Positions 54,923-60,702 of a stretch of 64,000 nucleotides of DNA are shown in pieces (the stretch's first letter is position 1; every line of letters starts with the position of its first letter). The position numbers were made by a program, and so were the translations under genes. The notes beneath the pieces are model-generated. The model made no database searches. It was not told where the DNA came from and was given only the letters and a program-made list of their open reading frames with translations. Origin of the DNA: an uncultured Gammaproteobacteria bacterium (GTDB lineage: Bacteria; Pseudomonadota; Gammaproteobacteria; UBA6429; Thiohalophilaceae); assembly GCA_913064945.1 (NCBI GenBank), contig CAJYAN010000001.1:124001-188000 (forward strand), written 5' to 3'.

Positions 54923-55003
54923 TTAACGCAAAGGTGCCGTGGCGCTAAGCAAAACAAGTTATTAGTCTTGTCATGACTTAGCAGCACGACGTCTTCGCGT
55001 TAC
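54923..55003. repeat. Operon repeat element A (rpe/gph spacer)
   Basis: Inverted repeat of about 81 bases. TAACGCAAAGGTGCCGTGGC followed by GCTAAG pairs with CTTAGC then CACGACGTCTTCGCGTTA read back; an inner stem ACAAG/CTTGT closes it. Nearly fills the gap between rpe and gph. Shares the AACGC-AAG-CG end motif with elements B-E. Confidence 0.8.
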
Positions 55004-55018
55004 TAATGGTATATATAA

Positions 55019-55708
55019 ATGCTTAAGAAACCTGAAATGATCCTGATTGATGTGGATGGCACGCTGGTCGACAGCGTACCAGACCTGGCCTATTGCGCCG
55101 ACGAAATGCTGAAGGCCCTTGGCATGCCGGCGCATGGTGAGGACAGGGTGCGTGAATGGGTTGGCAACGGCGTAGAGCGCCTGGCCCGGCGTGCCCTGAT
55201 CGGTCAGCTCGACGGTGAGCCTGACGATGCCCTGTTTGCCAGGGCCTACCCGATCTACCTGGAGTTGTATGCCGAAAATACCAGCAAGCGCAGTACCCTG
55301 TATCCGGGTGTGCGTGAAGGCCTGAACTATCTCAAGGCGCAGGGTTACCGGCTGGGTTGCGTCACCAATAAGGCCGAGCAGTTTACCCTGCCCCTGTTGA
55401 ACGACCTGGGCGTGGCGGACTATTTCGAGATCATTATTAGTGGCGACACGCTGCCGGTGAAAAAGCCGGATCCGGGTCCCCTGCTACACGCGGCCCAATT
55501 CTTCGGCGTTGCCCCGGAAAATGCGCTGATGATTGGCGACTCGGTGAGCGACGTAACAGCAGCGCGTGCCGCCGGGTTTCAGATTCTCTGCATGAGTTAT
55601 GGATACAACCACGGTGTGGATATTCGTGAAGCCAATCCCGATGTAGTCATTGACTCCATGGCGGAGTTGCCTGCACTATTAGATGCGGCACAACAAGGTG
55701 CGGCGTAA
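55019..55708 (+). CDS. gph: Phosphoglycolate phosphatase
   Basis: 229 aa, HAD family. DVDGTLVDS (nucleophile Asp), the middle Thr/Ser motif in VTNKAEQF and motif IV GDSVSDVTAARAAGF, with the cap domain between. It recycles 2-phosphoglycolate from DNA repair or Rubisco oxygenation. The gene order rpe-gph-trpE is usual in gammaproteobacteria. Confidence 0.94.
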   Translation: MLKKPEMILIDVDGTLVDSVPDLAYCADEMLKALGMPAHGEDRVREWVGNGVERLARRALIGQLDGEPDDALFARAYPIYLELYAENTSKRSTLYPGVREGLNYLKAQGYRLGCVTNKAEQFTLPLLNDLGVADYFEIIISGDTLPVKKPDPGPLLHAAQFFGVAPENALMIGDSVSDVTAARAAGFQILCMSYGYNHGVDIREANPDVVIDSMAELPALLDAAQQGAA

Positions 55709-55837
55709 GTACGGACCAGCGAACAAAAGACCTGAAGAAATGCAAAGTCACTTTTATACAGATAATCGATGGTGCAGCTAGTGGCGTAACTGGCTGTGAT
55801 TTTCTGTGTGTGACAAATTTTTCTTTGGGTAAAAAAA

Positions 55838-57322
55838 ATGAACGAATCAACTTTCAAGGCTCTGGCCGGGCAGGGGTACAACCGCATTCCATTAATGCGG
55901 GAAGTGCTTGCCGACCTGGATACACCGCTTAGTACCTACCTCAAACTGGCCAATGGGCCCTATTCCTATTTGTTTGAATCCGTCCAGGGCGGTGAAAAAT
56001 GGGGCCGCTATTCCATGATTGGCCTGCCCTGTCGCAAAATCATTCGTATCAGCGGCCATGAGGTGACCATTTTACAGGAAGGCGATGCGCCGGAGACACT
56101 GACGGTCGACGACCCGCTGGCCTGGGTAGAGCTGCTGCAAGAGCAATACAAAGTACCGGAAGTCGAAGGCATGCCACGCTTCACCGGCGGTCTGGTGGGT
56201 TATTTCGGTTATGACACGATTCGCTATATCGAGCCACGCCTGGCAACCTGCCCCAATGACGACCCGCTAAAGGTCCCGGATATCCTGTTGATGGTCTCTG
56301 AAGAAGTCGTGGTGTTTGATAATCTTGGCGGCAAGTTGTACGTCATAGTGCATGCCGATACGGTGGGTGAACATGCCTATACTGTAGCTGAGGCACGCCT
56401 GGACCAGCTGGCTCAACAGTTAACGCGGCAGGTGCATCACGAGGCCAAGCCGAGTTCGGTCAAGGTGAGTGAGGCAGATTTTATCTCGGGGTTTACCCAG
56501 GAGGGTTTTGAAGACGCCGTCAACAAGGCCAAGGAGTATATTGTCGAGGGGGATGTTATGCAGGTTGTTCTGTCGCAGCGCCTGTCGATCCCCTTTAGCG
56601 CCAAACCCCTCGACCTGTATCGCGCCCTGCGCAGCTTAAATCCATCGCCTTACATGTTTTATCTAGACCTGGGTGACTTCCATGTCGTGGGTTCCTCGCC
56701 GGAGATCCTGACCCGCCTCGAAGATGGTGAGGTCACCGTCAGACCCATCGCCGGTACACGGCCGCGGGGTAAAAACGAGGCAGACGATATCGCGCTGGAA
56801 AAAGACTTGCTGTCCGATCCAAAAGAACTGGCGGAACACCTGATGCTGATCGACCTGGGACGTAACGATGTCGGCCGCATTGCCAATACCGGCAGCGTTG
56901 AGCTGACGGAAAGAATGATTATTGAACGCTACTCTCACGTCATGCATATCGTCTCCAACGTCACGGGTAAATTAAAAGCAGGCATGAGTGCCATGGATGT
57001 ATTGCGTGCCACCTTTCCCGCCGGTACCGTCAGTGGTGCCCCAAAAATTCGTGCCATGGAAATTATTGATGAACTGGAACCGGTAAAGCGTGGTGTCTAT
57101 GCCGGTGCAGTAGGTTATCTGGCGTGGAATGGCAACATGGATACGGCCATCGCCATTCGCACTGCGGTCATCAAGGATAAGACCTTACACATCCAGGCGG
57201 GGGCTGGCATCGTGCATGACTCCATACCAAGAAATGAATGGGATGAGACGATGAACAAGGGTCGGGCAGTATTTCGCGCCGTTACCATGGCCGAGGCCGG
57301 GCTTGACGGCGCACACCGGTAA
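55838..57322 (+). CDS. trpE: Anthranilate synthase component I
   Basis: 494 aa. N-terminal regulatory motif [21 protein letters not shown], then the chorismate-binding catalytic domain with [40 protein letters not shown] and GTVSGAPK. It makes anthranilate from chorismate with NH3 from TrpG. Feedback inhibition by tryptophan is expected. Followed directly by element B, so trpG is 480 bases away. Confidence 0.97.
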
Positions 57323-57330
57323 ATGTTGAC

Positions 57331-57792
57331 AACGCAGAGACGCCGCGACGCAGAGTTCACAGAGGAAAATGTATTTAATGTGCAAGGGAATGCATATATG
57401 GATGAGAATGTAATTTCTGTACAGGTTATTGCTGCCGCGATTGAAGTCCATAGGAGTTTAGGACCGGGTCTGTTGGAATCGGTATATCAGCAATGTATGA
57501 AATATGAATTAGAGGCAACTGGCCTGGACTGTCAGATTGAGTTGCCGGTTACTGCCGCCTATAAAGGTAATGTTTTGATTCTGCATTTCGTATTGATATG
57601 TTAGTTGCAGGAAAAGTTGTTGTTGAGTTGAAAGTGGTCGAAAGGATTTTATCGTTGCATGAAGCCCAGTTTCTGTCATATCTACGTTTGACAGGAAATA
57701 AATTAGGACTGTTAATCAATTTTCATGCGCTAACAATCAAACAAGGATTGAAGCGGATAGTAAATAATTTATAACTTTTGCGCCTTTGCGTT
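57331..57792 (+). mobile_element. Operon repeat element B (trpE/trpG) carrying a broken GxxExxY gene
   Basis: About 460 bases. The left end AACGCAGAGACGCCGCGACG (57331) matches the reverse complement of the right end (AACGCAAAGGCGCAAAAG, from 57792 back). The pair of ends encloses one GxxExxY-type gene with a frameshift. The right end stops 10 bases before the trpG ATG. Such AACGCAGAGACGC ends recur around GxxExxY genes in other genomes (from memory). This is the only long, gene-bearing member of the family in the window. Confidence 0.75.
57398..57774 (+). pseudogene. GxxExxY protein gene, frameshifted
   Basis: MDENVISVQVIAAAIEVHRS followed by LGPGLLESVY gives the family motif G-x-x-E-x-x-Y. 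One base is missing after 57577; restoring it yields VLDSAFRIDMLVAGKVVVELKVVERI, the PDDEXK-like D...E-x-K part, and an end at 57774 for about 125 aa, the usual length. The annotated frame without correction stops at 57604. Decay may be real or a homopolymer sequencing error (GTTTTG). Confidence 0.85.
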
Positions 57793-57802
57793 GAGAAAAT
57801 AT

Positions 57803-58381
57803 ATGTTAGTAATGATCGACAACTATGACTCCTTTACCTATAACCTCGTGCAGTACTTTGGCGAGCTGGGCGCTGAGGTCAGTGTCTATCGCAACGACCA
57901 GATTACAGTAAAAGAAATTGAGGCATTAGAGCCTAAGTATCTGGTCATCTCACCAGGGCCCTGCACACCGAATGAGGCGGGGATATCGGTCGAGGCGATT
58001 AAATATTTTGCCGGTAAATTACCGGTTCTTGGTGTCTGTCTTGGACATCAGGGTATTGGCCAGGCCTTTGGCGGTAAAGTCGTACACGCCAAACAGATCA
58101 TGCATGGCAAGACTTCCATGGTGCATCACAATAACACCGGTATTTTCAGGAACATTGAAAATCCCTTTGAGGCGACGCGTTACCACTCGCTGGTGATTGA
58201 ACAGCAGAGTCTGCCGGGCTGCCTCGAGGTTACTGCCTGGACCGCCAATGACGATGGCAGTATCGATGAGATCATGGGCGTGCGTCATAAAGAGTATGCG
58301 ATTGAAGGTATGCAATTTCATCCCGAGTCGATACTGACGGCGCAGGGACATGCCCTGTTGAAAAATTTTCTGGAGTATTGA
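57803..58381 (+). CDS. trpG: Anthranilate synthase component II (glutamine amidotransferase)
   Basis: 192 aa. ATG at 57803 ([19 protein letters not shown]). Class I glutamine amidotransferase with nucleophile Cys in [15 protein letters not shown] and the His/Glu pair in MQFHPESIL. It supplies ammonia to TrpE. The only purine-rich stretch before the start is GAGAAAA (57793-57799), at the junction with element B, so insertion has shaped its translation signal. Confidence 0.95.
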
Positions 58382-58385
58382 TTCA

Positions 58386-58562
58386 TCGCTAAGACGCGGA
58401 GTAATTCGACACTATCGGCCGGTAACCGCATGATTTTCTGTTTGTTATGAAGTTGTTTCCCGGTATATTTTTTAATACCTGGAATTGCCATGTATTGACG
58501 AAACGTATTCCGGCAACTTAGGTTAACTACATTAACATTCGTTATCAGCGTCTTTACGGTGA
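58386..58562. repeat. Operon repeat element C (trpG/trpD spacer)
   Basis: Left CGCTAAGACGCGGAG matches the reverse complement of the right end (CACCGTAAAGACGCTGA read back from 58562). It fills nearly all of the 203-base spacer. No ORF. The middle is unlike the other copies. Confidence 0.65.
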
Positions 58563-58584
58563 AAAAAATCAGGGGACATAGATT

Positions 58585-59604
58585 ATGGACATGCAAACTG
58601 CGATTAAGGCCGTCACGGAAAAGAAAGATCTGACGACGGATGAAATGACCGCGGTCATGCGGACAATTATGACTGGTGAGGCCACCCCGGCGCAGACAGG
58701 TGGTTTTTTGATCGGCCTGCGTATGAAGGGTGAGACGGTAGATGAAATTGCCGCCGCCGCTGGCGTAATGCGTGAGCTGGCGACAAAGGTCAACGTCAAT
58801 ATTGCGCCGCTGGTGGATACCTGTGGTACGGGCGGTGATGGCTCGAATACCTTTAATATTTCAACAACAACAGCCTTTGTGGCGGCGGCCGCAGGTGCTT
58901 ATGTTGCAAAACACGGTAATCGTTCCGTCTCGAGTAAATCCGGCAGTGCCGACGTACTGGAAGCCGCGGGGGTTAATTTACAGTTAACGCCAGAGCAGGT
59001 TGCCGAGTGCGTTGAAAAGGTGGGTGTCGGTTTTATGTTCGCGCCGGCGCATCATAGTGCTATGAAGCATGCTATCGGGCCTCGCAAGGAAATGGGTGTA
59101 CGCACGATTTTCAATCTGCTGGGGCCGCTAACCAATCCTGCCGGGGCACCGAATCAGGTTATGGGAGTCTACGGTGAACAATGGCTGGAGCCTCTGGCCA
59201 ATGTCTTACAGAAACTTGGTAGCCGCCATGTTATGGTCGTCCACAGTGATGATGGTATGGACGAAATCAGTATCAGCGCGCCGACACAGGTTGCTGAGCT
59301 TAAGGATGGGCAGGTAAGTCGTTATCGAATCGAACCAGAACAATTCGGTATGGCCCGGCAGGATATAAAAACTCTGGCGGTAACGGATGTCGCACAGTCA
59401 CTGAAAGTAATGCGTGCCGTACTGAACGGTGAGTCTGGTTCGGCAAGTGATATTGTCGCTTTAAATGCCGGGGCCGCCATCTATACTTCGGGTCTGGCAG
59501 ACGATCTCAAGTCTGGCGTCGCCCGGGCGCAGGAAATAATCAATAGCGGTACAGCCACGTCAAAACTGGATGCACTGGTTAGCTTGACCAGGTCTTTTGC
59601 ATAA
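58585..59604 (+). CDS. trpD: Anthranilate phosphoribosyltransferase
   Basis: 339 aa. ATG at 58585 with GGGGA upstream. Signature [28 protein letters not shown], then [20 protein letters not shown] and the phosphoribosyl pocket [18 protein letters not shown]. It transfers phosphoribose to anthranilate in the second step of tryptophan synthesis. Confidence 0.97.
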
Positions 59605-59612
59605 AAATTTAT

Positions 59613-59750
59613 TGCAAAGGCGTAGCGAGCGGCAGGGGATTTAAATTTATATTGTGACTGTGATGTTATGCAAAATATAAAATATAGTTTAGTGCATCAA
59701 CATAATTGATAATGGTCTTAACTTTGCGTTCTCCGCATCTTGGCGGTGAG
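59613..59750. repeat. Operon repeat element D (trpD/trpC spacer)
   Basis: The right end ACTTTGCGTTCTCCGCATCT then TGGCGGTGAG is a clear family end (reverse: CACCGCCAAGATGCGGAG then AACGCAAAGT). The left end, GCAAAGGCGTAGCG at 59614, is weaker. No ORF. Confidence 0.6.
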
Positions 59751-59773
59751 GTCAGTAACTTGAGTATGTAAAA

Positions 59774-60568
59774 ATGAATACCCCCGATATATTAAAAAAG
59801 ATTGTTAAACGTAAACAGACAGAGGTTTCGGAACGCCTCTCCGAGATCCCGTTGGCGGAACAAATTGATCGGGCCATGGCGGATTCACCCGTGCGTGGCT
59901 TTGTGCAGCATATTGAGCAAACCATCCAGGCAGGCAAGGCGGCGGTGATCGCCGAAATTAAAAAAGCTTCACCGAGTAAAGGGGTGATGCGAGAGAATTT
60001 TATTCCCGCCGAGATTGCCCGGTCTTATGAAAAGGCTGGTGCCACCTGTTTATCGGTGTTGACCGATGTCGATTTTTTTCAGGGTAGTGATGCCTATTTA
60101 CAACAGGCCCGTAATGCCTGTTCACTGCCGGTCATCCGTAAAGATTTTATCATTGACCCGTATCAGGTTTACGAGGCCCGTGCCATTGGCGCCGACTGTA
60201 TTTTACTTATCGTCGCCTGTCTGGAGGATAGCAAGCTGATTGAACTCAATACCCTGGCGCACGAACTGGGCATGGATGTGCTGGTGGAAGTGCATGATGT
60301 CGAAGAGCTGCAAAAGGCACTGTCATTACCCAATCGATTGATCGGTATTAACAACCGCAACTTGCGTAGCTTTGAAACCTCCTTGCAGACCACGATAGAT
60401 TTATTGGCCCGAATCCCGGCGGGGCGTATTGTGGTTACAGAAAGCGGCATTCACAACCCGGAAGATGTGAGTCTGATGCGGCAGCACGATGTCAATACTT
60501 TTCTGGTGGGAGAGGCTTTTATGAAAGCTGCTGATCCTGGCGTAAAGCTTAAGGAGTTATTTTCTTAG
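59774..60568 (+). CDS. trpC: Indole-3-glycerol phosphate synthase
   Basis: 264 aa, single-function TIM barrel. [67 protein letters not shown] and [12 protein letters not shown] are the family blocks, including the catalytic Glu/Lys/Asn sites. It closes carboxyphenylaminodeoxyribulose-phosphate to indole-glycerol phosphate. The trp genes B, A and F are not next to it. Weak GAG site upstream. Confidence 0.96.
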
Positions 60569-60571
60569 CTA

Positions 60572-60694
60572 GACGCAAAGACGCCAGGCACGCAAAGAAA
60601 AAATCTGCCCGGCTGAGCGGACTCTGAGTTTTGTTACAGGGTGTGAAGGTTATTAATCGTTGTCTCTCTGGGTACTTCGCGCCTTGGCAGTGAA
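60572..60694. repeat. Operon repeat element E (after trpC)
   Basis: The left end GACGCAAAGACGCCAGGCAC then GCAAAGAA is a clean family end; the right end reads back as TTCACTGCCAAGGCGCGAAG. It spans almost the whole gap between trpC and the convergent crp gene. Best-preserved of the short copies. Confidence 0.75.
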
Positions 60695-60702
60695 ACGTTC
60701 GT

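What the first reader, a model, noticed from the sequence alone, without database searches (positions are those of the whole stretch)
54923..60694. One inverted-repeat family occupies five spacers of the rpe-gph-trpEGDC operon
The spacers after rpe, trpE, trpG, trpD and trpC each hold a diverged inverted repeat with ends like AACGCAAAGACGC. Only gph/trpE lacks one. The genes themselves are intact. Five copies of one family within 6 kb of a single operon, and none that I can find elsewhere in the window, suggest repeated local insertion or spread, with spacers as the only tolerated targets. Copies differ in length (about 80 to 460 bases) and only one carries a gene. Whether the hairpins now tune expression along the operon (RNA processing, partial termination) is open.
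Basis: partly seen in the sequence, partly recalled or inferred. Interest (0 to 1): 0.85.

Follow-up and report, generated by a model that had tools for sequence, protein, structure and literature searches.

The report
Word-armed nuclease elements in operon spacers
The gaps between this bacterium's tryptophan genes hold mostly decayed copies of a widespread, apparently mobile kind of element: a small nuclease gene, or nothing, between two mirrored arms built from a repeated 8-letter word, where the word differs between genomes, matches that of the resident nuclease gene, and keeps turning up in the same gene gaps across species.

Summary
In detail: five spacers of rpe-gph-trpEGDC contain inverted repeats with AACGCAAAGRCGC-like ends, and no others occur in the window. 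They are not local. The arm occurs dozens of times across this genome, 17 of 18 mapped copies intergenic and none between divergent genes. The gene in the trpE-trpG copy is GxxExxY (TIGR04256, PD-(D/E)XK nuclease) and is frame-broken here. It occupies the same spacer, on the same strand, in at least 15 other species; related species have a clean 2-50 bp spacer. Nearly every inspected GxxExxY region elsewhere shows inverted arms made of short repeated words. The word differs between elements but is shared by both arms (0 of 20,000 permutations, twice). Genome-wide word abundance follows the resident's word: two congeners hold CGCAGAG 227 to CACGGAG 33, and 26 to 352. Where the word differs at one site the interior is unrelated, so the element was replaced. 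Best reading: a REPIN/RAYT-like family maintained by an unrelated nuclease, decaying here (copies C-E no longer fold better than shuffles). The exception, gph-trpE, carries a trp leader peptide. That the nuclease acts on the arms is inferred. I found no description of this in the papers searched.

The parts
54923..54949 (+). Element A (rpe-gph), left arm TTAACGCAAAGGTGCCGTGGCGCTAAG
   Evidence: (E 4.3e-4), coordinates
54977..55003 (-). Element A right arm; the two arms share the variant ...GTGNNGCTAAG inner unit; RNA hairpin z -4.5
57329..57355 (+). Element B (trpE-trpG), left arm ACAACGCAGAGACGCCGCGACGCAGAG
57398..57771 (+). GxxExxY gene (TIGR04256 / PF13366 PDDEXK_3) inside element B; reading frame breaks near 57586, so the D and E-x-K catalytic residues lie in another frame than the start: pseudogene; only GxxExxY in this genome
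57775..57794 (-). Element B right arm
58382..58401 (+). Element C (trpG-trpD), degenerate left arm
58540..58562 (-). Element C, degenerate right arm
59608..59629 (+). Element D (trpD-trpC), degenerate left arm
59722..59750 (-). Element D, degenerate right arm
60569..60597 (+). Element E (trpC-crp, convergent genes), left arm
60675..60695 (-). Element E, degenerate right arm
55740..55781 (+). Probable trp leader peptide MQSHFYTDNRWCS* in the gph-trpE spacer, the one spacer without an element; followed by a hairpin

Best explanation
The five repeats are one damaged GxxExxY element (B) and four gene-less relatives (A, C, D, E) of a dispersed family. An element is two inverted arms, each a short array of one 8-9 nt word (here mainly RCGCNNAG), around either a GxxExxY PD-(D/E)XK nuclease gene or unrelated filler. 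It sits just after the stop codon of a transcribed gene; the GxxExxY gene lies in the operon's own direction and has no obvious promoter of its own. I propose that the GxxExxY protein recognises the arms (as DNA hairpin or duplex) and moves or copies arm-bounded DNA, as RAYT is thought to do for REPINs, with operon spacers as repeated landing sites because the arms pair in the transcript and do little harm there. Shown: anatomy, genome-wide dispersal, arm coupling, same-spacer recurrence, replacement between congeners, agreement of resident word with genome-wide word, purifying selection in one species pair. Inferred: that GxxExxY is an active nuclease, that it acts on the arms, that the RNA stem is what makes insertion tolerable. 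In this genome the system is decaying: the only GxxExxY is broken.
For: Own genome: 29 exact core arms against 1 for the reversed pattern, 41 arms at E<=0.014, 17 of 18 mapped elements intergenic, 13 codirectional, 5 convergent, 0 divergent. GxxExxY in trpE-trpG of 15 of 37 comparable loci incl. the window, always in operon direction, plus L151; these form essentially one lineage of the GxxExxY tree, the one 'other' row inside it (L151) being a trp copy too. Other lineages sit in other recurrent gene pairs: cbbS-cbbQ, thiG-trmB, cusB-cusA, pth-ychF; in another family of the phylum many sit in trpD-trpC. Arms of the same element match each other better than arms of other elements, 0 of 20000 permutations in 33 and again in 29 elements. 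Trp-GxxExxY genomes have far more word dimers than empty ones (MWU p 2.5e-7). Resident word tracks genome word: G007 227 CGCAGAG / 33 CACGGAG, G021 26 / 352; Spearman 0.72 over 14 genomes. G028 against G033: trpE/G/D 95/94/97% identical yet GxxExxY 50% and different arm word; trpG-trpD interiors unrelated (z -0.1), while the more distant pair G022/G033 with the same word has homologous interiors (z 9.5). dN 0.036 / dS 0.38 for GxxExxY in G001/G018.
Against: No target-site duplication was seen; excision or transposition was not observed. Gene-less copies share only arms, not interiors, which is odd for simple deletion derivatives. GxxExxY is rare on plasmids (8 of 72,556, none mobilizable) and in viral contigs (1 locus). 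Phylogenetically independent pairs support the GxxExxY-arm-count link in direction only (about 4 of 6 agree, 0 oppose, p 0.125). G033 breaks the word rule (resident CGCAAAG, genome 13 against 24). In the own genome the resident element's arms are among the worst matched to each other. S23 elements show the same arm architecture with an unrelated protein, so the arms may not need GxxExxY at all.
Confidence: 0.6

Rival explanations
1. Intergenic homing endonuclease: GxxExxY is a free-standing PD-(D/E)XK homing enzyme that copies itself into one gene junction (such as trpE-trpG) in strains lacking it; the arms are a by-product.
For: Filled and empty versions of the same gene junction in related species, lineages tied to particular gene pairs, replacement at one site.
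Against: Does not explain dozens to hundreds of gene-less arm pairs with the same word, nor five spacers of one operon, nor that one gene pair (cbbS-cbbQ) was entered by two separate GxxExxY lineages.
Confidence: 0.15
2. RNA-level insertion elements like 23S rRNA intervening sequences: the arms are selected for pairing in the transcript so that RNase III cuts the insert out; the carried gene (GxxExxY or S23) is a passenger and spread uses host processes.
For: S23/four-helix-bundle genes in the same genomes have the same word-armed architecture, one of them (L220) inside what reads as 23S rRNA; all copies lie in transcribed positions, none between divergent genes; arm pairing is maintained while words change; IVS excision by RNase III is established in Coxiella (PMC4990558).
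Against: Does not by itself explain genome-specific words that follow the resident element, nor GxxExxY conservation. RNase III processing of these elements was not tested.
Confidence: 0.2
3. Host regulatory hairpins, kept to tune expression along the trp operon.
For: Hairpin A folds well; position in an operon.
Against: C, D, E have decayed; the same spacers are empty in many relatives; sequence and interior are not conserved between congeners.
Confidence: 0.05

Closest known systems
REPIN/RAYT (REP-associated tyrosine transposase) systems
   Same: Dispersed extragenic inverted doublets without a gene, plus one or few non-multiplying gene copies per genome; the repeat type agrees with the resident gene; tolerated 3' of genes (PMC3116915).
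   Different: The gene is a PD-(D/E)XK protein, not an HUH (Y1) transposase; arms are arrays of 8-9 nt words, not REP palindromes; the words change coherently on both arms; recurrent use of the same operon spacer across genera.
23S rRNA intervening sequences with S23 (four-helix bundle) protein
   Same: A small gene between long inverted arms in a transcribed region; gene-less and degraded forms occur; S23 copies in the same genomes have word-built arms.
   Different: Different protein family; here in mRNA spacers, not rRNA; RNase III excision not shown.
MITEs (non-autonomous DNA transposon derivatives)
   Same: Short, gene-less, terminal inverted repeats, intergenic.
   Different: No known parent insertion sequence and no target-site duplication found.
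GxxExxY protein family TIGR04256 / Pfam PF13366 (PDDEXK_3)
   Same: The element B gene matches at 126 bits (cut-off 35).
   Different: The family is annotated only as a protein; I found no description of its arms or of associated dispersed repeats in the papers searched.

Membership tests
GxxExxY / PDDEXK_3 | Profile match over the curated cut-off | tested here: met
   TIGR04256 8.3e-37, 126 bits against 35; PF13366 3e-36, for the two frames joined across the break with X
GxxExxY / PDDEXK_3 | Intact open reading frame in this genome | tested here: not met
   Frame break near 57586; two half matches
REPIN/RAYT | HUH (Y1) transposase as the associated gene | tested here: not met
   The gene in the element is PDDEXK_3; a RAYT elsewhere in this genome was not searched for
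REPIN/RAYT | Dispersed extragenic inverted doublets | tested here: met
REPIN/RAYT | Gene as one or few copies, with repeat type matching the resident gene | tested here: met
   1-5 GxxExxY per genome; words follow the resident
REPIN/RAYT | REP unit itself palindromic, GTAG-type end | tested here: not met
   Arm consensus TYAACGCAAAGRCGCNNWGRCGCAAAG is not a palindrome
23S rRNA IVS | Located in 23S rRNA and cut out by RNase III | tested here: not met
   In mRNA spacers; cutting not testable
23S rRNA IVS | S23 four-helix-bundle protein | tested here: not met
   Gene is PDDEXK_3; S23 elements occur separately
MITE | Target-site duplication | tested here: inconclusive
   None seen by eye at own-genome sites or at trpE-trpG against empty relatives; AT-rich flanks extend the arms, so ends are not sharp
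MITE | Parent insertion sequence with the same ends | not tested
   No transposase search around arms beyond GxxExxY and S23

The most novel reading that the evidence does not exclude
A new kind of bacterial mobile element: a PD-(D/E)XK nuclease that maintains and spreads arm-bounded DNA whose ends are arrays of a short word; the word can change, the changed word then re-populates the genome, and operon spacers such as trpE-trpG are refilled repeatedly by new variants. S23/intervening-sequence elements would be a second protein using the same arm architecture.
Probability: 0.35. Interest if true: 0.9.

Novelty: new variant of a known kind. Interest (0 to 1): 0.78.

Why it matters
If right, it gives a widely distributed but functionally blank nuclease family (GxxExxY) a role and a substrate, explains a class of CGCAAAG / CACAGAG / CACGAAG-type inverted repeats seen in many genomes, and offers a natural experiment in which recognition sequence and enzyme change together between congeners (G007/G021). 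It also ties mRNA-spacer elements to 23S intervening sequences by shared architecture and makes both directly testable.

Tried and rejected
Local burst in one operon: rejected by the genome scan. Expression tuning for C-E: not supported. In-place conversion of arm words: at sites where the word differs the interiors are unrelated (z -0.1 to 1.6 at the two g12 and two g8 comparisons), while most same-word orthologues are alignable, so replacement fits better; but interiors can diverge under a kept word too (site 1 z 2.7; rpe-gph G013/G036 z -0.2), so this rests on few sites. Rfam: no family matches the window or the gph-trpE spacer. Structure prediction of a viral-contig GxxExxY from one sequence: pLDDT 39.5, unusable; no fold search done. 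PDB profile search: no significant relative. The genome contigs protein scan gave only partial Chlamydiae matches whose flanks held no such arms. Paper searches for the arm words gave no relevant paper; for GxxExxY / PF13366 they gave incidental mentions only; that library lacks most subscription journals.

Full report
WHAT IS THERE. The five inverted repeats exist at the stated places. Left and right ends are in inverted orientation in each spacer. A and B are strong; C, D and E are degenerate. Sister species carry word-armed inverted repeats in the same spacers, so C-E are most likely relics. The window holds no other pair.

NOT LOCAL. In the whole genome (3.21 Mb) ACGCARAGRCGC occurs 29 times exactly, against 1 for the reversed control. 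A sequence-only model of the 27-nt arm, built from 33 arms, finds 50 matches at E<=1, 41 of them at E<=0.014, over many contigs. The arm consensus is TYAACGCAAAG-RCGCNNWG-RCGCAAAG, that is three units of 8-9 nt. Of 18 elements examined in context, 17 are intergenic against 12% of random positions in the same loci; 13 lie between codirectional genes, 5 between convergent and none between divergent genes, often 3-30 bp after a stop codon. From the flanking sequence I read the gene pairs as hisA/hisF, pheS-pheT and gatA-gatB among others (gene names from my reading of the translation, not searched).

THE GENE. The 57398-57771 frame of element B is GxxExxY (TIGR04256, PF13366, for the two frames joined across the break). 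The frame breaks near 57586; this is the only GxxExxY in the genome. The family has invariant E27, D67, E77-x-K79 and Q91/Y95, in the order of a PD-(D/E)XK nuclease with a QxxxY motif (plus established knowledge of that superfamily).

SAME SPACER, MANY SPECIES. The trp region of 40 related genomes was fetched. TrpE-trpG is 467-677 bp with GxxExxY in 15 of the 37 loci where both genes are present (window included), and mostly 2-50 bp otherwise. L151, fetched by protein, is one more. The trp copies form essentially one lineage of the GxxExxY tree; filled/empty needs 10 changes on the TrpEGD tree, no more clustered than shuffled labels. Other GxxExxY lineages sit in other gene pairs seen repeatedly (cbbS-cbbQ, thiG-trmB, cusB-cusA, pth-ychF, leuD-leuB), and in another family of the phylum many sit in trpD-trpC. 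Gene pairs were named from the flanking peptide ends.

ARMS. Nearly every GxxExxY locus inspected has inverted arms of repeated 8-11 nt words (CGCAAAG, CGCAGAG, CACGGAG, CACAGAG, CACGAAG, CACCAAG, CGCCAAG and others). The word differs between elements and is the same on both arms: own-partner arm scores exceed those of swapped partners in 0 of 20000 permutations, for 33 elements and for 29 further ones. Not all loci score well: L117, L119, L134, L161, L199 and the window's own B do not.

RESIDENT AND DISPERSED COPIES AGREE. A generic word-dimer pattern has a median of 76 hits in genomes with a filled trpE-trpG and 0 in empty ones (Mann-Whitney p 2.5e-7; independent phylogenetic pairs agree in direction but are too few, p 0.125). 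For specific words, CACGGAG dimers number 352 in G021 (resident word CACGGAG), 33 in G007 and at most 2 in 18 others; CGCAGAG dimers number 227 in G007 (resident CGCAGAG) and 26 in G021. Over 14 genomes the resident's CGCAGAG:CGCAAAG ratio correlates with the genome's (Spearman 0.72, 10 of 5000 permutations); the counts include the resident itself, and G033 goes the other way.

REPLACEMENT. G028 and G033 (one genus) have TrpE/G/D 95/94/97% identical but GxxExxY 50% identical with different arms; trpG-trpD interiors do not align (z -0.1), whereas the more distant pair G022/G033 with the same word aligns (z 9.5). G011 of the same genus has a 2-bp trpE-trpG spacer. So the same spacers have been emptied and refilled. 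In G001/G018, where the element is shared, GxxExxY has dN 0.036 and dS 0.38, near trpG (0.037 and 0.60): it is under purifying selection there. At other orthologous sites of G007 and G021 one site has a full element in G021 and an arm remnant in G007, and one has different element types in the two species.

WHY ONE SPACER IS FREE. Gph-trpE contains a short ORF with Trp codons (MQSHFYTDNRWCS*, 55740-55781); a comparable leader occurs in 27 of 30 relatives, 25 with Arg-Trp, and the region folds (z -3.65). A trp leader/attenuator there would make insertion costly. This is inference from anatomy; no Rfam match.

LINK TO INTERVENING SEQUENCES. S23 four-helix-bundle genes (TIGR02436) in these genomes have the same architecture with other words (GACGAGG, CAACTGA, TTCAAAA); one (L220) is in sequence I read as 23S rRNA. 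One lies 6 kb beyond the window (C1:194016). This suggests the arm architecture is not tied to one protein.

MECHANISM, WITH STATUS. Shown by sequence: family, dispersal, arm coupling, recurrent sites, replacement, word agreement. Inferred: GxxExxY acts on arms; insertion just behind stop codons is tolerated because the transcript stem is harmless or cut by RNase III. Not shown: activity, transposition, target duplications. In this genome the family appears to be decaying.

LIMITS.

Noticed in passing
window 55740-55781: Probable trp leader peptide MQSHFYTDNRWCS* before trpE; Arg-Trp conserved in 25 of 30 relatives; not matched by Rfam.
   Followed up: partly
G000:C1:194016-194327 (L214), about 6 kb right of the window: S23 / four-helix-bundle gene after rpsI and before a tRNA, flanked by inverted arms of another word (GACGAGG); the same rpsI-tRNA site is filled in nine other loci.
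   Followed up: partly
L261 9650-9965: Nested inverted repeats of three families, one inside another (CGCAAAG arms, then GTAGGAGCGGCGCC, then GACGAGG words); the orthologous G007 site keeps only a remnant of one arm.
   Followed up: no
L018 and several g8 loci: Another dispersed inverted repeat, TGTAGGAGCGGCGCC...GGCGCCGCTCCTACA, beside or inside these elements.
   Followed up: no
L220 (G007:C90): S23 element inside what reads as a 23S rRNA gene, i.e. a classical intervening sequence with word-built arms.
   Followed up: no
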